DNA of 64,000 nucleotides from Sodiomyces alkalinus F11 (taxonomy: Eukaryota > Ascomycota > Sordariomycetes > Glomerellales > Plectosphaerellaceae), in contig NW_021167080.1 of NCBI RefSeq assembly GCF_003711515.1, forward strand, positions 5,970,346 through 6,034,345. Direction: 5' to 3'. The notes under the pieces are model-generated. The model was not told the origin of the DNA. It searched no databases and saw nothing but the letters and a program-made list of their open reading frames with translations. A program made the translations under genes and the position numbers. Positions 17,821-60,600 of the stretch are shown here, piece after piece (within the stretch, counting starts at the first letter, position 1; every line of letters starts with the position of its first letter).

Positions 17821-19899
17821 CTAGGCCAAATGGACAGTGTTAAATAGGCGGTTCCCCGTGTCCGTTGTCCCTCGACCGGTATACTTATTCTCCGAGACCC
17901 GGAACGGTACAACAGCGTCGAGGCCATACACTGAGAGCTTGTCGAGCGCATACTCGCCTTTGTGAACCGCCCTGTCTTGGAGTACGCCGGCGACCACGAC
18001 GATTCGAAGGTCTTCGCGCTGTTTGGAGACATGCTTGACGAATTCCGAAATAGATTTCCCGGTGTTGATGACCGAGTCGACCAGGATGACAGTACGCAGG
18101 TCCTCGAGATGCTCCCGCTTGACGTCCTCAGGCCGAGCCGCATGAAGAAACATTGCGCCGGGAAAGGCGTCGTTGACGCCTAAAGCCATCGGCTCGCCTC
18201 CTCGCATCAGGGGCACGATCAACGTCTTTTCCTCGTCACGCAGGCGGAAGCCGGTCGTCTCGTACCCCTGGACGTGCGGGATCGGGGACTCCTCAAGCCC
18301 AATAACCTCAGTAAGATACGTTGTTGCCATATAGCGTCCAACCACGCGATGTGCTTTCCGTAGGGCCGGACCGGAAATTCTGGCATCGCGCATGGGAGTC
18401 ATTAAGAGTTGGCTTGCGCCGGTGCCTGACGCTCCAATCACTCGTACTCGGCCAGGTTCAAAGCCCTCGTGACGAGGTCTGGCTTTCTTCAGGTGCACCG
18501 AGGTGAAAATGGATTCAAGAAAGTCCTGGTCGTCGAGCCCAACCAGGGGTAAGCAGCCAATGCTGAGACGTGGCTTCGTGTCGTTGGGCAACAGAAGCTG
18601 TCGTGCTCGGAAACCTTCATGGTCGACGGCTCTGTGCAGGGATGCCTCCATTGACCTGCTTCGGATCTGTTCCTCGCAGACAACCACAATGGCTTCATCG
18701 GCCGCCCTCAGCATGGGTAAGTCCAAGGTACTGTCGCCAAATGCCCATACCCTGGTGCGATGAGCTCGCTGAAGATGTTCGACCACCGCGGCTTTGACAT
18801 TGGCTGTAACGATGAAAGAGTCCGGGTCTGCGACTCTCCCCGTCCCGATGACCTTCACGATCCCGAGCAGAGACTCGCGCTCCAGGACTTTCTCCCAGAT
18901 TTGGCGCAGCCCGCATGTCAGGACGACGGCCCCCACATTATTGTCTGCCTCCAACAGGCACAGGAAGGACAGAAACTCGGGGTGAATGGTCACCATAGAT
19001 GCAACCTCGGCACAGAGCTGTTCGAAGTCTTGGTCGTCGATATTCTCCCCGTACAGGAAAGAGGCCTGGCGGAAGGCGGCGTACGAATAACCCATTGGAC
19101 TGCCGAATAAGGCCTTCAGGGGACAGCCTTGGATCTCGTCTGTCTCGACTACACCAGCCGCTGACGCTGCCTTCCAGAACAAAGCCCCGGTATCCACAGG
19201 AGCCAGAGTCTTGTCCCCGTCGAAAACAAGCATGCGATGGATGCGGCCCCGGTTGTTGGCAGCTCGCACGATGGCATCTAGCCTTTTCTGGACCCGATCC
19301 ATGTTGTTCTCTTCCGTATGGGAAGCGACATTGCGCAGGAGTACCGAGATCCTGTTGGCTAAGCACGTATGATGGGGCACGACGGTGAAAATGATTCGGT
19401 TCTGGCGGCAAAGGAGTCTGAGACGGGCTTCTTCAGTGTTTTGCCATTTGCGGAGATGGTCAACAGAGGCAGGCGGGCGATCTCTCTCTTTGTCTGACAA
19501 GCGGCGCTGGGAGATGACTTCGGCAGGGACATGAATGTAGAAAATGTGCGTGAAAACGGCCAAATCCATAGGCGTGATAACCTGGTTTCCCTCCTTTCCC
19601 CCCTCCGTCCAAAACATGAAATGGCCGGCGACGACTCCGACGCGTCCGAGAAACTCGCACTCTTCTTGAATCTTGCTGATGGCGGCCCGCCGAATAGTGT
19701 TCTGTTGATCATCTGACATGCGTCGAAAGCCTTCGAGGCCACCCTCGGCCAGAGAGGCAATCACATCGGAGCCCTCGAAGAAGCGGAACACTCCCTCCCC
19801 GAGCTGCTCCTTGAGTTGGCGGATGAGGAAGCTTTTGCCCGAACCAGGGACACCATAGAGCCCCACGACGGGAATTTTGAAGTTTTTGAGACCGTCCAT
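17821..19899 (-). CDS. Three-domain P-loop kinase / HAD hydrolase / uracil phosphoribosyltransferase-like protein
   Basis: This intronless 692-residue protein has three recognisable parts. Residues 10-195 form a P-loop NTPase of the nucleotide-kinase type with Walker A GVPGSGKS at 16-23. Residues 220-405 form a HAD-superfamily hydrolase with motif I FDGDKT (226-231; nucleophile D227, acid D229) and motif IV GDSTLDLP (388-395), resembling phosphoserine phosphatase. Residues 480-692 form a phosphoribosyltransferase with the PRPP-loop equivalent VDSVINTGKS (607-616) and a UPRTase-like tail GTTDTGNRLFNT (677-688). The PRPP loop has VDS rather than the usual two acidic residues. The order suggests a nucleobase or nucleotide salvage or repair role, but the substrate is unknown. 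The ATG at 19899 precedes the P-loop directly, which supports it as the start. Similar fusions are, to my recollection, found in other ascomycetes. Confidence 0.85.
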   Translation of the reverse strand: MDGLKNFKIPVVGLYGVPGSGKSFLIRQLKEQLGEGVFRFFEGSDVIASLAEGGLEGFRRMSDDQQNTIRRAAISKIQEECEFLGRVGVVAGHFMFWTEGGKEGNQVITPMDLAVFTHIFYIHVPAEVISQRRLSDKERDRPPASVDHLRKWQNTEEARLRLLCRQNRIIFTVVPHHTCLANRISVLLRNVASHTEENNMDRVQKRLDAIVRAANNRGRIHRMLVFDGDKTLAPVDTGALFWKAASAAGVVETDEIQGCPLKALFGSPMGYSYAAFRQASFLYGENIDDQDFEQLCAEVASMVTIHPEFLSFLCLLEADNNVGAVVLTCGLRQIWEKVLERESLLGIVKVIGTGRVADPDSFIVTANVKAAVVEHLQRAHRTRVWAFGDSTLDLPMLRAADEAIVVVCEEQIRSRSMEASLHRAVDHEGFRARQLLLPNDTKPRLSIGCLPLVGLDDQDFLESIFTSVHLKKARPRHEGFEPGRVRVIGASGTGASQLLMTPMRDARISGPALRKAHRVVGRYMATTYLTEVIGLEESPIPHVQGYETTGFRLRDEEKTLIVPLMRGGEPMALGVNDAFPGAMFLHAARPEDVKREHLEDLRTVILVDSVINTGKSISEFVKHVSKQREDLRIVVVAGVLQDRAVHKGEYALDKLSVYGLDAVVPFRVSENKYTGRGTTDTGNRLFNTVHLA

Positions 19900-20464
19900 T
19901 GTCTGCCAGGTGTTTAGGATATAGAACCGCAGTGATCAGAAGTACCGGGAGAGATCTTAAGTATCGGGAGAGACCTTGAATATAGGCGAGTTATTGCCAC
20001 AGCTCTCTCGTCTAGGGGGCATACGGGCTATTTATCAAATAGCCAGACCAAGGGGCACATAAAGGGGTTGTTGGGTAACAACAAGGCCACCAATGCATGG
20101 TTCCTCAACCCAGCCCAAACGGCAGGCTATCAAATCCATCTCCTTTCTCGCCATATGGCTGCTTGCAGGCTGTTTCCCGAAGGCATCGCAAATTAATTCG
20201 TCTTGTGACATCAGGGGGCAATCCAGAAAGCAAAGAGCGAGCCCTGGGGGGGTTTCAGCGTAGCAATAGGCTGGGAAGACAAAAGCGAGAGGTGTTACAC
20301 GACTCCAATAACCTCGCGCGGGAGGCCCTCCACTTTTGATGTTTCCACCCAGACTCTGCTCTTGCATGGAAAGAAAAGAGGAAAACTGGTTTCGTTGCCT
20401 ATCAGGACCGATGTCGCTCCCTCCTAATGATCTGACGCGTCTTCCCCGCGGCCTTGCCCTTCTC
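19900..20464. other. Intergenic region between the three-domain gene and a small gene
   Basis: It holds the 5' flank of the 17821-19899 gene and the 3' flank of the 20465-20923 gene. Overlapping open frames on both strands at 20035-20553 show no conserved pattern. No gene is called. Confidence 0.4.
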
Positions 20465-54645: not shown

Positions 54646-54981
54646 ATGGTTAGCAAGGAAGTCCACGGTGCACTCGCCGCCTTCGTCGCCGAGCGAGACT
54701 GGGTGCAGTTCCACACTCCGGAGAACCTTGCCAAGAGTGTCGTCGTCGAAGCCGGCGAGCTCCTCGAGTGCTTCCAGTGGAGCGCCGAAGCCGACCCCAA
54801 GCGCGTACGCGAAGAGCTAGCCGACGTCCTGACCTACTGTCTGCTTCTAGCAGACCGGATCGGAGTCGACCCAGGGCAGATCGTGTTGGAGAAGCTCGAA
54901 ATAACGCGCAAGAAGTACCCTGTCGACAAGGCGCGAGGCAGCAGCAGGAAGTATGACCAACTTGAGGATCGCCCAGCTTGA
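54646..54981 (+). CDS. MazG-like nucleotide pyrophosphohydrolase, bacterial type
   Basis: A compact intronless ORF encodes 111 residues of the all-alpha NTP-pyrophosphohydrolase (MazG-like) superfamily. It opens with VAERDWVQFHTPENLAKSVV and carries the metal-binding pattern E35xxE38 (VEAGELLECFQW) and E57xxD60 (REELADVLTYCLLLAD). The family end follows: RKKYPVDKARGSSRKYDQL. Such enzymes hydrolyse non-canonical or surplus nucleoside triphosphates to the monophosphate and pyrophosphate. The size and single-domain form are typical of bacterial proteins, usually paired with a second gene. The next ORF starts inside this one (29-bp overlap, ATG at 54953), a bacterial operon trait. The key residues are intact, so the enzyme could be functional if transcribed. 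Confidence 0.85.
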   Translation: MVSKEVHGALAAFVAERDWVQFHTPENLAKSVVVEAGELLECFQWSAEADPKRVREELADVLTYCLLLADRIGVDPGQIVLEKLEITRKKYPVDKARGSSRKYDQLEDRPA

Positions 54982-55708
54982 TTTCTCCAAGGATGCCGTC
55001 ACGACGTGGAGAGCCCATGACGAGAGACACAGCAACTGGCCTGTCGTGTACGTGTTGGACGATGGCCGCGGCACCGCCCGGGCAAGTTCGAGCCAGCTGA
55101 GGGACATCTACGTTGGGGAGTCGCTTAATGCAGCTGGCCGACTGCGGCAGCACCTCGAAACGCCTGCAAAACAGCATCTCAAGAACATCCACGTCATCTT
55201 CGATGAAAGATTCAACAAGTCGGTCTGCCTTGATTTAGAATCCTACCTCATCAAGATGCTGGCCGGTGACGGTGCCAGCCGAGTGCTCAACCGGAACAAC
55301 GGCATCACCGAATCCAGATACTTCCAACGCGAGTCATATCGCGAGGGCTTCCGCAACATTTTCGAGCGACTTCGAGCCAATGGCGTCTTCACGCGGGGTC
55401 TTCATGAGATCGAAAACAGCGATCTGTTCAAGTTGTCACCGTTTAAGGCATTGACAGACGATCAAGCAGCTTCGGTCGAGGAGATTGTCAAGGGCCTCCT
55501 TGCTGATCTCGAGAGCGGCACCGACAGCATGATCGTGATCCAGGGCGATCCGGGCACCGGCAAAACGGTGGCGGCCATATACTTGATCAAGCTGCTCGTC
55601 GACATCCAGACTTTCACCACACTCGAAGATTGGACAGCGACGCGCGGTTCGCTACTTTCTTCTCCGACACCAACCGGGGGCTGCTCCAGGGTCTCCGTGT
55701 CGGCCTAG
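54953..55708 (+). CDS. GIY-YIG nuclease plus N-terminal half of a DUF2075 ATPase (frameshifted)
   Basis: The ORF encodes 251 residues. Residues 28-115 form a GIY-YIG-type nuclease domain with VVYVLDD (31-37), IYVGES (52-57), Arg63 and the candidate catalytic Glu96 (LDLESYLIKML). After a linker (NRNNGITESRYFQRESYREGF), residues 150-218 begin a DUF2075 P-loop ATPase: LFKLSPFKALTDDQ, then Walker A GDPGTGKT (198-205) and YLIKLLVDI. The frame then leaves the family pattern at about residue 227 and stops at 55708, while the expected continuation (DSDARFATFF) appears in the +1/-1 neighbouring frame from about 55630. A one-base loss near 55629 explains this. In actinobacteria such proteins are single chains of about 600 residues lying next to MazG-like genes. 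Confidence 0.82.
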   Translation: MTNLRIAQLDFSKDAVTTWRAHDERHSNWPVVYVLDDGRGTARASSSQLRDIYVGESLNAAGRLRQHLETPAKQHLKNIHVIFDERFNKSVCLDLESYLIKMLAGDGASRVLNRNNGITESRYFQRESYREGFRNIFERLRANGVFTRGLHEIENSDLFKLSPFKALTDDQAASVEEIVKGLLADLESGTDSMIVIQGDPGTGKTVAAIYLIKLLVDIQTFTTLEDWTATRGSLLSSPTPTGGCSRVSVSA

Positions 55709-56721
55709 TCGTGCCACAGCAGTCGCTGCGATCTTCCATCAAAGCTGTCTTCAAGAAAACGCCTGGACTCCAGCCCTCTATGGTCATGACGCCTTTTGAC
55801 GTGGGACAGGCAGATGGAATCTTCAGCCTGCTGCTCGTCGATGAGACTCATCGGCTCAGTCAACGTGCCAACCAACCTTCAGGAGTGCTCAACGCCAAGT
55901 TTGCAACCATCACGAGAGAGCTTTTTGGCGGCGACGACACCAGCAAGACCCAACTGGACTGGATACGGGCCAAGAGCCGGCATCAGATATTCCTGCTGGA
56001 CGCAGCGCAGAGTGTCCGCCCGGCCGACCTGCCGTCGGAGTTGCTGTCGGGCCTGGTGGCCGACGCTCGTGCGTCGAGACGGCACTTCCAACTCCGGACG
56101 CAGATGCGCGTGCGGGCGGGATCCGACTTTGTGTCCTACGTCCGCTGGATTCTTGACCCTCGTCCTCTCTCGCTTCCGCGGATGCGACGCGATTTCGGGG
56201 ACTATGACTTCCGCACCTTTGAATGCGTCGCGCACATGCGAGACGAAATCTTCCAGCGCGATGCAGAGGTGGGTCTTGCACGGATGGTCGCCGGCTACGC
56301 GTGGGAGTGGAAGACGAAGAAGGACAAGACGGCGTTCGACATCGAGATCGGCGATACGCAACTCTGCTGGAACAGCACAGCCACCGACTGGATCTCCTCC
56401 AGCAACGCGCTCAAGGAAGTGGGATCAATCCACACGGTGCAGGGCTACGACCTGAACTACGTCGGCGTCATTATCGGTCTGGACCTGCGGTTCGACCCCG
56501 CGCGGCGACGTCTCTTCATCGATCGCGACTCGTACTTTGACAAGAAGGGCAAGGAGAACAACCCGGCCCTCGGCAGGACCTACTCGGACGATGACCTGTT
56601 GCGGTTCATCACACAGATCTATGCCGTGCTTATGACGCGCGGGATCCGGGGGACGTATGTGTACGCATGCGATCATGGGTTGCGGGAGTATCTTAAAGGT
56701 CTCATTCCATTCCATTCGTGA
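55630..56721 (+). CDS. C-terminal half of the DUF2075 ATPase/helicase-like protein, out of frame with its N-terminus
   Basis: This frame carries the rest of the DUF2075 ATPase. It has GLRVGLVVPQQSLRSSIK and FKKTPGL, Walker B LLLVDETHRLSQRANQPSG, HQIFLLDAAQSVRPADLP, QLRTQMRVRAGSDFVSYV, and a late motif GSIHTVQGYDLNYVGVIIG typical of superfamily 1 helicase motif V/VI. It ends ITQIYAVLMTRGIRGTYVYACDHGLREYL. Read with the upstream part it gives a nearly full-length protein of about 590 residues and only one break. No intron with good borders bridges the joint. Either the gene is a recent pseudogene or the two halves are separate products or recoded. There is no ATG at the start of this frame near 55630; the first codon is TTG. 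Confidence 0.8.
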   Translation: MDSDARFATFFSDTNRGLLQGLRVGLVVPQQSLRSSIKAVFKKTPGLQPSMVMTPFDVGQADGIFSLLLVDETHRLSQRANQPSGVLNAKFATITRELFGGDDTSKTQLDWIRAKSRHQIFLLDAAQSVRPADLPSELLSGLVADARASRRHFQLRTQMRVRAGSDFVSYVRWILDPRPLSLPRMRRDFGDYDFRTFECVAHMRDEIFQRDAEVGLARMVAGYAWEWKTKKDKTAFDIEIGDTQLCWNSTATDWISSSNALKEVGSIHTVQGYDLNYVGVIIGLDLRFDPARRRLFIDRDSYFDKKGKENNPALGRTYSDDDLLRFITQIYAVLMTRGIRGTYVYACDHGLREYLKGLIPFHS

Positions 56722-57256: not shown

Positions 57257-57649
57257 TACCCCCTTAGTTAAGGTAGGTCTTTCTAGGTTAACTAATTAAT
57301 TAGAGGCTTCGGTTTAAACTAAAAGCTCTTAAATTTTCTATTATAAAATTAATAGTTAAGGGAAAACGCCCTTATAAAAAGGATATAAATCCGCCTTATT
57401 TAACTATTTAATTTAATTCTATCTTAATCGGTTCTTTAATCCTAATTAGCTAGATCTACTTAATCGGATCTATATCTATCGGATCTACTACGCCCTTAGA
57501 GCTCTTTATCTTTACTATAGCCACGGCTTTAACGCGTTTAATCTCTTTATATAATTATTTTAACTACGCGATATAATCCTTTTAATCCGTTCAATTACGC
57601 TATTCCTATAGTCTTTTAATCCTTATCTTTAGTAATACTTTAAGATCGA
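57257..57649 (-). mobile_element. copia 3' internal fragment, truncated
   Basis: It matches 1663-2020 nearly continuously (CTTAGTTAAGGT, AACTAATTAATTA, CTTTTAATCCGTT). The match is lost at about 57650, where a LINE sequence begins. The copia copy was therefore probably interrupted or cut there. Confidence 0.75.
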
Positions 57650-60600
57650 GTATCGTTAAGCCGAAAGTGCCCCTAAGGTACCGTATTATCGATAAAATCA
57701 ATTCTGACATCGGATTCGGACTCTACGCCCTTAAAAGTACCGGAGACCGATATCGTAGCGAGGCCGTAGAGGGCGTGGTGAGTTATATACTATAGGGCGG
57801 CCTATAGGGCTAACCGAACACGATACCGGTATACTACTATAGAGCGCCTAGAATACGATAACTAAAACTAACCCGGGGCGTATAGCCCCAGAAGAGCCCT
57901 AAAAATCCTAGGCACTGAGCGGGCGTACCGAAGGCGTATTATATAAACTACGTACCTAATTTTCCGGACTATTAGCTAATAGGGTAAGCGCCGATAAGGC
58001 GCTAAAGCTAGTATAGAAGATCCTTTAAACGTAATACTATAAGACTATTATAGGGAAGCCGCTACGCTAATAACCCGGTAGCGATATACCCCCCCTTATA
58101 ATTAAAGGGCTTACCGACACGATCTAATAAGCGATTAAGGGTATACTAACGGAATTACTCGGAGTAGCAGGACCTAAGACCTACGCCTAGGTAGTGGGGA
58201 GCACGCCCGCGTAGCGCTAATATATTAAGATAGCACCGGTAAAGGTTATACTCACCCGATACGCCCGAGAACTAATAGTCTAATACGGAGACGCTAAGAC
58301 CGACCTTAAAAGCCGAACCCTATAAAAGATTATTAAGGCGGTTAATTAAGTTACCCGCTATATAGATATAATAGCCGCGTAATAACTCCTAAGCGGCGAC
58401 GTGATTCTTATATTTAAGTATAGGAATAAATAATAGATAGCGAACGCGAATAACTAGGTTAAAGGCGTATTGGGTATAAAAGCCACGATATATAAGAAAA
58501 CGTATTAAGTTATAGTAAAAGGAATACCGATAGCGTAGCTATTAACTTATAACCCTAACGCGGCGCTATAAAAACTTTAGCTATAGAATAATATAGCGAT
58601 TACCCGGATTAAGGCTAAGAAACCCAGGAATAATATAGCGCGGACGGCGTTACTAATTATTAAGGTCGCCCGCCCTAAGGACACGGAGCGACTAGTAAAA
58701 GAGGGAGTCTTCTTTAATTACGGATACTATAATAGCGAACCCTATAACCCTAAGATCTCCCTATAACAGTGCTTTAAGTGCCTTAACTTCGGATATAAAG
58801 TAGGTTAGTGCTAAGCGATAAAAGCGCTATACAGGTATTATGGTGGTATAGAGTTAGCGTACTAAAAGGGCTTTATAGCGTATAAAGCTAAGATAGACCC
58901 GAAGAAAAAGCGTTACGCCGCCTATAAAGGGCCGTATATGGTATTTAACGATAAATACCTAAATAAAGTAAAGGAAAGGGCGCGGATTAAGGAGGTATAT
59001 ACTAATAGAGTAAAGGGATTTAACCTTAGCTAACTCGAGAAATATAAGGCGGAAAGGGAGTATAGCGTTTTTATAGCGTTATTAGACACGATAATAGTCC
59101 CCAAACCGCCCGAGAAAAAGAGAAAATAGAAAAGACGCCCTTTAGGGTCGCGGAATATCCTCCTTAGATTATATACTGCCCTTTTTACGCCTACTCAGGA
59201 TAATAATATTATAAGGTTCCTCGCCTTTAATACTACCTTCTAGCCTCTATAAAGGCTTATCCCTTACCCCCGGGCTATACCTAAGGCGTAATTATAAAAT
59301 AAAGCGAGCGCGGCGTAGCCGCCTAAGATAAATAATTAGAATCGCTTAGTGGAATATAAGGGGATAGCGGGATAGAGTATAATAAGCGCTCTATAACTAT
59401 AATAGGTATAATATAATAGCGGTAATAAAGCCTAGGTTAGATAAAAGAAAGAACCTAATTTACTTAAGGGGATATAATTATAGAATAGTATAGGGGAGTA
59501 AGCGCGCCTTACTCTATATATATAAGCGGTATAAGGCTATTACGTTTACGTGGTATACGGGTAAGAATTAGGCCTAGGCTATAATTAGAGTCGGGATATA
59601 ATAGTAGGAGATAAATATATAGGTAGTATACTTACTATACTATAAGAGAGGAGAGTAGGAGACCCTGATATATAATCTTATAGCAGAACCGGAGTAGTAG
59701 TATACCGTCCTAGTAGGAGACTTTAACCTAAAAAACCACTTTTAGGATAGGTATAATAGATACGAAAGATAATCGGAAGACCTTATTACGCTCGCGTACT
59801 AATAGTAACTTAACCTAATAACCCTAAAAGGATATATTACTAGGACCTCGGCCGATACTAATCGATAGTATAGTACACTAGACCTTACCTAGGTTTCGGC
59901 GGACCTTATATACGTATACTAGGAGGATAATCTAGACCAAATAGGCTTAGACTATATAGCCTAGGTAATTAATATTAATACGGTATAACCGCGCTAGCAT
60001 ATTACTAGTAAAGGATAAAGGTAGAGGAAGTTAGACTAGGAAACGGCCTAGAGAGAGGCCTAGAGGCTAGACTATAGAGAAATACCCCTTACCCTAAAAG
60101 TAATCGACTAGGTAGTAAACTAAATACTATAAGACCTTATTAGTATCGCGGACGCTATAGCGCCGCGCCGCGAGCTAGCCGCCTTCCGCAATAGGCTGCT
60201 ATAGTGGATATAGGAGATAGTAGAGGCGAATAAGGAGGTAATAAGGCTAACACGGCGTTATTATAGGTAACGGTCGCGCGGTAGGTAGAATAAACCTAAG
60301 GAGGTAGAAAAACACCGCGATATTCTAGTTAGAATAAAGAAGCGGAAGAGCTAGCGCGGCGCCGTTAATACGATAGTAGTAGACTAGAAAAGCCTCTAGG
60401 TATTATAATGCTGGGCCTAAACGGTAAGCCACCTACCCCTAGACCTCCTATTTATCCCGCCCCTATAGTATAGCGCGGGCGGACTAATCGCGATAATATA
60501 TAACGGGAAAGCGATAATCCTTATAAAGAAGTTTTTCCCCCTACTATACCCTATAGAAAGCGGGCGTATTAGCGGTGCGCTAAGGACGGCGGTAATACTA

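What the first reader, a model, noticed from the sequence alone, without database searches (positions are those of the whole stretch)
54646..56721. Bacterial MazG plus GIY-YIG/DUF2075 cassette in a fungal chromosome
Two overlapping intronless ORFs encode a single-domain MazG-like pyrophosphohydrolase and a GIY-YIG/DUF2075 ATPase. From established knowledge, this pair is a bacterial (notably actinobacterial) gene neighbourhood with nucleotide clean-up, nuclease and helicase-like parts, similar in make-up to defence or DNA-repair islands. Here the 29-bp overlap is kept, every neighbouring fungal gene of known family except the three-domain gene and SGF29 has introns, and a RIP-mutated repeat block starts 270 bp downstream. 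Horizontal transfer from a bacterium is my inference. If intact copies exist in relatives, this could be a transferred nucleotide-pool or anti-element system in fungi.
Basis: partly seen in the sequence, partly recalled or inferred. Interest (0 to 1): 0.88.

Follow-up and report, generated by a model that had tools for sequence, protein, structure and literature searches.

The report
Bacterial gene pair settled in fungi
A two-gene bacterial unit (a nucleotide-cleaning enzyme overlapping a nuclease-helicase) sits in the chromosome of a soda-lake fungus, belongs to one lineage found in many other fungi, and seems to keep its bacterial overlapping layout, which fungi are not expected to translate easily.

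Summary
The MazG ORF (54646-54981) and an overlapping GIY-YIG + Schlafen-group-3 helicase gene (54953-56721) are real and of bacterial (Microbacteriaceae-type) descent. They lie in a 6.5-Mb contig of Sodiomyces alkalinus F11, between a GNA1 gene and a genome-wide repeat. First, the second gene is not one open frame: it changes frame cleanly between residues 224 and 225, with all 98 family-invariant residues kept. It is freshly broken, mis-sequenced or recoded; the deposited model bridges the break with introns that delete conserved residues. Second, this is no isolated transfer: named helicase relatives, 76-94% identical, occur in 11 other fungal genera including Mycena; sampled bacteria reach 68%. 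In helicase trees, fungal and metagenome rows form one clade without the sampled bacteria. Fifteen of 17 contig-matched protein pairs can be encoded by overlapping frames, five over 23 nt or more (control 0 of 2,023 at 20 nt), so the bicistronic overlap appears retained. One paper states that in none of its cited operon transfers was the polycistronic structure retained. Start contexts and absence of intervening ATGs fit leaky scanning, weakly supported. Nucleic-acid defence or repair is inferred.

The parts
54646..54981 (+). ORF1: single-domain MazG-like (all-alpha NTP pyrophosphohydrolase, DCTPP1-like), 111 aa, intact, no intron needed
   Evidence: ORF; PF12643 3.8e-20; nearest solved structures RS21-C6/DCTPP1, 5.8e-22; one match in the genome
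54953..54981 (+). 29-bp overlap of ORF1 end with the start of the second gene
   Evidence: bacterial relatives overlap by 14 nt in 51 of 61 loci measured, of 80
54953..55708 (+). second gene, first piece: GIY-YIG nuclease domain and Walker A of the helicase (residues 1-224 of the P0002 homologue, then a run-on in the wrong frame to the stop)
55630..56721 (+). second gene, second piece in another frame: rest of the Schlafen-group-3 (DUF2075) SF1 helicase, residues 225-587 of the P0002 homologue (listed start TTG is mechanical)
   Evidence: PF09848 2.1e-51; 335 of 363 residues identical to Stachybotrys elegans P0002; one match in the genome
53196..53480 (-). exon of a glucosamine-6-phosphate N-acetyltransferase gene (left flank)
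57645..58600 (.). start of a genome-wide repeat (right flank)
   Evidence: at least 39 other copies, 85-91% identical; GC falls to 0.37

Best explanation
A two-gene operon of a Microbacteriaceae-like actinobacterium (MazG pyrophosphohydrolase, then GIY-YIG nuclease-SF1 helicase) entered fungi long ago, once or from one narrow source. It has since been inherited and/or passed among fungi, and was kept as two overlapping reading frames, not split into two fungal genes. Most likely one mRNA is made: ribosomes that skip the weak first start, or reinitiate after the MazG stop, translate the nuclease-helicase (inferred). The proteins probably act on nucleic acids in conflict or repair: the helicase-nuclease engages and cuts aberrant or foreign nucleic acid while MazG removes non-canonical or excess nucleotides (inferred from domains). 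In Sodiomyces F11 the second frame is interrupted by a recent lesion or a sequencing error.
For: Gene order is the same in bacteria, and the start spacing of 307 bp is the same in 48 of 70 loci that hold both genes. The careful helicase tree of 52 rows holds 34 fungal and metagenome rows in one clade, support 100/100, with 18 bacteria on the other side; the FastTree of 201 rows gives the same split, 120 against 81, SH 100. The closest bacterial helicase found is 68% identical to the Stachybotrys protein, whereas the 120 listed rows are 74-94% identical to the window piece. None of the 80 kept bacterial loci exceeds 76% for MazG. At E 1e-100 the helicase is in 101 of 398 genomes drawn from the family of a Naasia genome (query P0002) but in 3 of 396 drawn across its phylum (query P0008). 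Deposited gene models in Ilyonectria, Cenococcum and Alternaria (two), besides the window's own, begin with MazG and run into the nuclease-helicase, which shows adjacency. Fifteen of 17 contig-matched pairs are compatible with overlapping frames. Key GIY-YIG and Walker positions are invariant in 41 rows, and the window keeps all 98 invariant residues. In the window the MazG ATG has C at -3, there is no ATG in any frame over the next 304 nt, and the second ATG has A at -3, the pattern that PMC11291117 reports for bicistronic genes of green algae (abstract and passages). Bacterial MazG stretches hold 3.0 ATGs on average, none in 7 of 110 loci.
Against: The only fungal DNA I could read is the window, so overlap elsewhere rests on proteins. 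The 17 pairs come from unnamed metagenome or genome contigs, and ten of the 15 compatible ones rest on only 11-14 nt. Absence of ATGs in the window is not rare by chance (10-16% under synonymous recoding, 39% of dinucleotide shuffles). Loss of internal methionine in clade MazG (7 of 87 rows against 49 of 98 in bacteria) disappears when counted as independent events (5 of 197 against 51 of 1540 in the helicase, p 0.67, and 19 of 426 in bacterial MazG, p 0.37). The MazG tree does not recover one fungal clade (bacteria need 10 changes of label, at least 2 forced by starred branches). ATGs exist upstream of 54646 and the transcript start is unknown. Gene models offer a splicing alternative. No expression or activity data exist here; the Sodiomyces copy may be dead.
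Confidence: 0.7

Rival explanations
1. Several independent transfers from one unsampled, fungus-associated bacterial lineage, so that the fungal clade is really a bacterial clade sampled many times.
For: 100 of the 119 rows in the large tree are unnamed and mixed among fungal rows; in the careful tree Sodiomyces sits inside Hypocreales and the Dothideomycetes rows are not together.
Against: Several groups are coherent in the careful tree: five Mycena rows, the two Leotiomycetes rows, Alternaria with Clohesyomyces, Trypethelium with Bathelium and one unnamed row (class names recalled). AU tests do not reject Hypocreales without Sodiomyces (p 0.206) or Dothideomycetes together (p 0.279). None of the bacterial genomes sampled falls in the clade.
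Confidence: 0.15
2. Splicing joins the two frames: the fungal gene is one spliced gene in which part of MazG becomes the N-terminus of the nuclease-helicase.
For: Deposited models in Sodiomyces, Ilyonectria, Cenococcum and Alternaria join them; two of the five (Ilyonectria, Cenococcum) leave MazG at the same residue.
Against: The joining points otherwise differ. In Sodiomyces the model skips most of MazG, residues around the frame break, and residues 511-539 of the helicase, which hold three positions invariant in 41 homologues (Y526, D528, G531). Other deposited fungal models have the helicase as a separate 587-aa protein with its own start (Stachybotrys P0002, Cadophora P0073, Mycena P0108). 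Gene callers do not as a rule allow overlapping genes (general knowledge).
Confidence: 0.15
3. The Sodiomyces copy is a pseudogene: the second gene is dead and only MazG is kept. (Compatible with the best explanation for other fungi.)
For: Clean change of frame inside the helicase between residues 224 and 225.
Against: All 98 invariant residues are kept, no other lesion is present, and the end branch of the second piece (0.029) is no longer than those of its neighbours (0.034-0.094). A single error in the assembly is also possible.
Confidence: 0.45

Closest known systems
Bacterial MazG + DUF2075 (GIY-YIG/SLFN-g3 helicase) gene pair of Microbacteriaceae and other Actinomycetota
   Same: Same two proteins and order; start spacing of 307 bp in 48 of 70 loci; overlapping frames
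   Different: Resides in fungal chromosomes; overlap 29 nt in the window instead of usually 14; separate clade on a stem of 0.3 changes per column
Horizontal operon transfers into Wickerhamiella/Starmerella yeasts (thiamine salvage, enterobactin; passages of PMC13376923; the original papers were not read)
   Same: Bacterial operon captured by a fungus
   Different: Those are described as conversion of an operon into a eukaryotic gene cluster (PMC13376923); PMC11952965 (abstract and passages) says that in none of its cited examples was the polycistronic structure retained. Here overlap appears kept, and named relatives span Ascomycota and Mycena
Schlafen group III proteins (SLFN11, SLFN14)
   Same: Helicase profile of that name (PF09848); Foldseek hit to SLFN11 2.8e-07
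   Different: Pfam gave no Schlafen core domain at the cut-off used; a GIY-YIG-like part at the N-terminus instead; TM-score only about 0.3
DCTPP1 / RS21-C6 dCTP pyrophosphatase
   Same: MazG-like sequence with aligned acidic motifs (role of the residues recalled)
   Different: Single-domain form encoded next to a nuclease-helicase

Membership tests
MazG-like pyrophosphohydrolase | Family profile match above cut-off and ExxE / ExxD acidic motifs | tested here: met
   PF12643 72.4 bits against cut-off 27; motifs aligned with RS21-C6 (motif role recalled)
SLFN-g3 (DUF2075) helicase | PF09848 profile match, Walker A and B | tested here: met
   175.7 bits against cut-off 24; Walker A positions G196, G199, G201, K202 and Walker B-type D295, E296, H298 invariant in 41 rows; of these G196, G201, K202, D295, E296 and H298 were looked up one by one in the window pieces and are kept. 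They lie in two frames here
GIY-YIG nuclease | Profile match above cut-off; conserved Tyr, Tyr-x-Gly, Arg, Glu | tested here: inconclusive
   Profile 19 bits against cut-off 22.6; Y33, Y51, G53, R61, H65, E94 invariant in 41 homologues and kept in the window; nuclease role recalled
Horizontally transferred bacterial operon | Recipient clade nested within donor diversity | tested here: met
   Helicase trees; the short MazG tree is unresolved
Horizontally transferred bacterial operon | Integrated in recipient chromosome | tested here: met
   GNA1 gene and genome-wide repeat as flanks in one contig; reads not available
Functional eukaryotic bicistron | Single mRNA, both frames translated | not testable with these tools
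   No RNA-seq or ribosome profiling at hand; start contexts and ATG absence only suggestive
Known anti-phage defence system | Match to a defence model over its length | tested here: not met
   PADLOC on window MazG and three full-length fungal helicases: only partial weak matches, best 6.2e-08 over a P-loop stretch of about 50 residues, none for MazG
Starship cargo | DUF3435 captain (PF11917) nearby | tested here: not met
   13 matches in the genome (lower bound), none on contig C2

The most novel reading that the evidence does not exclude
A bacterial overlapping two-gene operon was captured early in Dikarya, or has been moving among them, and has been maintained for very long times as a true translated bicistron. 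It would be a natural test case of how eukaryotes express an acquired operon, coding for a nucleic-acid defence or surveillance pair new to fungi.
Probability: 0.45. Interest if true: 0.85.

Novelty: new variant of a known kind. Interest (0 to 1): 0.7.

Why it matters
How eukaryotes express operons acquired from bacteria is described as unknown (PMC11952965, abstract), and that paper says that none of the transferred operons it cites kept its polycistronic structure (passage). A pair that keeps overlapping frames across many fungi would make the question testable in nature. It would also be a nuclease-helicase plus nucleotide hydrolase that filamentous fungi took over from actinobacteria. I found no report of it in searches with the terms DUF2075/fungi/horizontal gene transfer (one paper, on Limosilactobacillus), Schlafen/fungi/GIY-YIG (none), DUF2075/GIY-YIG (none) and Sodiomyces alkalinus/horizontal (18 papers, 15 seen as a listing). 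The library lacks most subscription papers, and I did not read the Sodiomyces genome paper.

Tried and rejected
Starship cargo: no DUF3435 captain on the contig. Contamination by a bacterial contig: rejected on close fungal homologues and flanks. Copies on viral contigs: none found with P0002. Sodiomyces copy gained from Hypocreales: supported in the tree (99/88) but the AU test does not reject the alternative (p 0.206), so left open.

Vertical yardstick: the intronless three-domain gene of the window is only 49-54% identical to the 119 other proteins listed, against 89-94% for the helicase piece in the four Hypocreales rows. But that gene looks unusually divergent, so I do not use it as a clock.

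Methionine depletion in MazG as proof of leaky scanning: strong when rows are counted, gone when events are counted; not claimed. The MazG tree has too few columns to resolve; there the bacteria are not one side of a branch (10 changes of label), so the single-clade claim rests on the helicase. Bacterial neighbours: of 20 flanking ORFs tested in 11 loci (not always the nearest ORF), 12 had Pfam matches; about seven look like restriction, repair or defence genes (T5orf172, UvrA-like, SbcC-like, PNKP ligase, GmrSD, DUF3427 helicase, NYN/OST-HTH) and none recurs, so suggestive only. In one search one of the 61 loci gave a plainly mismeasured overlap (1,737 nt); the rest were 20 nt (4), 4 nt (3) and two gaps.

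Full report
What is there. ORF1 (54646-54981, 111 aa) is a MazG-like pyrophosphohydrolase. A second coding stretch starts at 54953, so that the frames overlap by 29 bp. Its first piece (54953-55708) carries the GIY-YIG part and Walker A. The rest of the protein, a Schlafen-group-3 (formerly DUF2075) helicase, follows in a different frame (55630-56721; PF09848 2.1e-51). Aligned to the protein of Stachybotrys elegans (P0002, 587 aa), the two pieces cover residues 1-224 (204 identical) and 225-587 (335 identical) without loss, and all 98 invariant positions tested are kept. So the second gene is interrupted by one clean change of frame. I cannot tell a young mutation from an assembly error.

Which organism. 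The deposited protein P0053, Sodiomyces alkalinus F11 SODALDRAFT_338913, maps to this locus in four pieces. Sodiomyces is in Glomerellales, Plectosphaerellaceae. The window lies at 5.97-6.03 Mb of contig C2 of a 43.4-Mb genome; P0053 is listed on a contig of 6,539,281 bp. The deposited model joins 41 residues of MazG to the nuclease-helicase. It skips the frame break and a further stretch (511-539 in P0002 numbering) that holds positions invariant in 41 homologues. I think these introns are artefacts, but RNA reads would decide.

Not contamination. The left neighbour is a GNA1-type acetyltransferase (best solved match 2vez). On the right a repeat present in at least 39 other places of this genome begins about 0.9 kb after the stop. 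MazG and the helicase piece each match the genome once; the first piece was not searched on its own.

Distribution. Of the 120 listed relatives of the helicase piece, 20 carry a fungal name, the window's own included: Fusarium, Stachybotrys, Ilyonectria, Sodiomyces, Cenococcum, Cadophora, Trypethelium, Alternaria, Bathelium, Bisporella, Clohesyomyces and five Mycena species. The listing is capped at 120 of 4293 hits. The other 100 are unnamed. MazG relatives include seven Fusarium rows and Monosporascus. The best sampled bacterial helicase is 68% identical to the Stachybotrys protein.

Descent. FastTree of 201 rows: the 120 fungal and unnamed rows are one side of a branch, SH 100, and all 81 bacterial rows the other. 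Within the clade the window groups with two Fusarium rows (99/88), then Stachybotrys, then Ilyonectria. This conflicts with taxonomy (Glomerellales against Hypocreales), but the AU test does not reject the taxonomic grouping (p 0.206), nor a single Dothideomycetes group (p 0.279). Mycena comes out at the base of the clade in the careful tree but nested in FastTree. So early vertical descent with losses and later fungus-to-fungus transfer are both open. The MazG tree (173 rows, 108 columns) does not resolve the question. At E 1e-100 the helicase is found in 101 of 398 genomes of the family of a Naasia genome, and in 3 of 396 drawn across its phylum, with two different clade proteins as query.

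The overlap. Of 80 bacterial loci kept, 70 hold both genes and 48 of these have the second start 307 bp after the first, as in the window. In 51 of 61 loci measured the frames overlap by 14 nt. For fungi I had no DNA but the window's, so I tested proteins. Seventeen pairs of MazG and helicase proteins share the same longest-contig length. For 15 of 17 there is a DNA sequence that encodes the end of MazG and the start of the helicase in overlapping frames, always in the same relative frame; ATG, GTG and TTG were allowed as start. For five the compatible overlap is 23 to 38 nt. Against unrelated N-termini, 30 of 2,023 trials were compatible at 11 nt or more and 0 at 20 or more. With ATG only and the first version of the test, 12 of 17 passed. 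The two failures have N-termini that begin further inside the protein. Ten of the 15 rest on only 11-14 nt, which is weak singly. Mismatched pairs of these homologues also often pass (48 of 272 at 13 nt or more), as expected for relatives. Five gene models of named fungi, the window's own among them, begin with MazG and continue as helicase, so adjacency holds in named fungi too.

How the second frame could be translated. In the window the MazG start has C at -3, the next ATG in any frame is the helicase start 307 bp on, and that start has A at -3. PMC11291117 reports for green algae a preference for weak contexts at ORF1 and few start codons before ORF2 (abstract and passages). The chance of no ATG is 10-16% by synonymous recoding and 39% by shuffles; bacterial loci have none in 7 of 110. 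So this is fit, not proof. MazG of the clade has few internal methionines (7 of 87 rows; 0 of 17 paired rows; 49 of 98 in bacteria), but as independent events the difference vanishes. Reinitiation after a stop, as induced in yeast (PMC11952965, abstract and passages), is the other route.

Function. The AlphaFold model of the Stachybotrys protein has mean pLDDT 85 and pTM 0.85; its top Foldseek neighbours include the SF1-type helicases Dna2, Upf1, SLFN11 and RecD2, at TM about 0.3 (class recalled). MazG is closest to RS21-C6/DCTPP1 among solved structures. PADLOC has no good model. Bacterial neighbours are variable and include several restriction or repair-type genes. I infer a nucleic-acid surveillance, defence or repair pair; this is not shown.

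Verdict. The interest lies in an acquired bacterial operon that seems to have kept its overlapping structure in fungi.

Noticed in passing
   Followed up: partly
window 17824-19935, minus strand: Intronless AAA_17 kinase / HAD / UPRTase three-domain gene whose best named relatives in the listing are only 54% identical and are truffles (Choiromyces, Tuber), not Sordariomycetes
   Followed up: partly
G000 contigs C4, C5, C10, C11, C18: DUF3435 (Starship captain type) matches; those on C10, C18, C5 and C4 carry stops inside, those on C11 none
   Followed up: no
Alternaria alternata P0089 and P0105: Gene models with most of MazG joined to a helicase that lacks the GIY-YIG part; may be artefact or real fusion
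   Followed up: no
Fusarium MazG rows P0124, P0163, P0177, P0192, P0221: Five of the seven named Fusarium MazG rows carry an internal methionine, while none of the 17 contig-paired MazG rows does; whether these Fusarium keep the downstream gene was not checked
   Followed up: no
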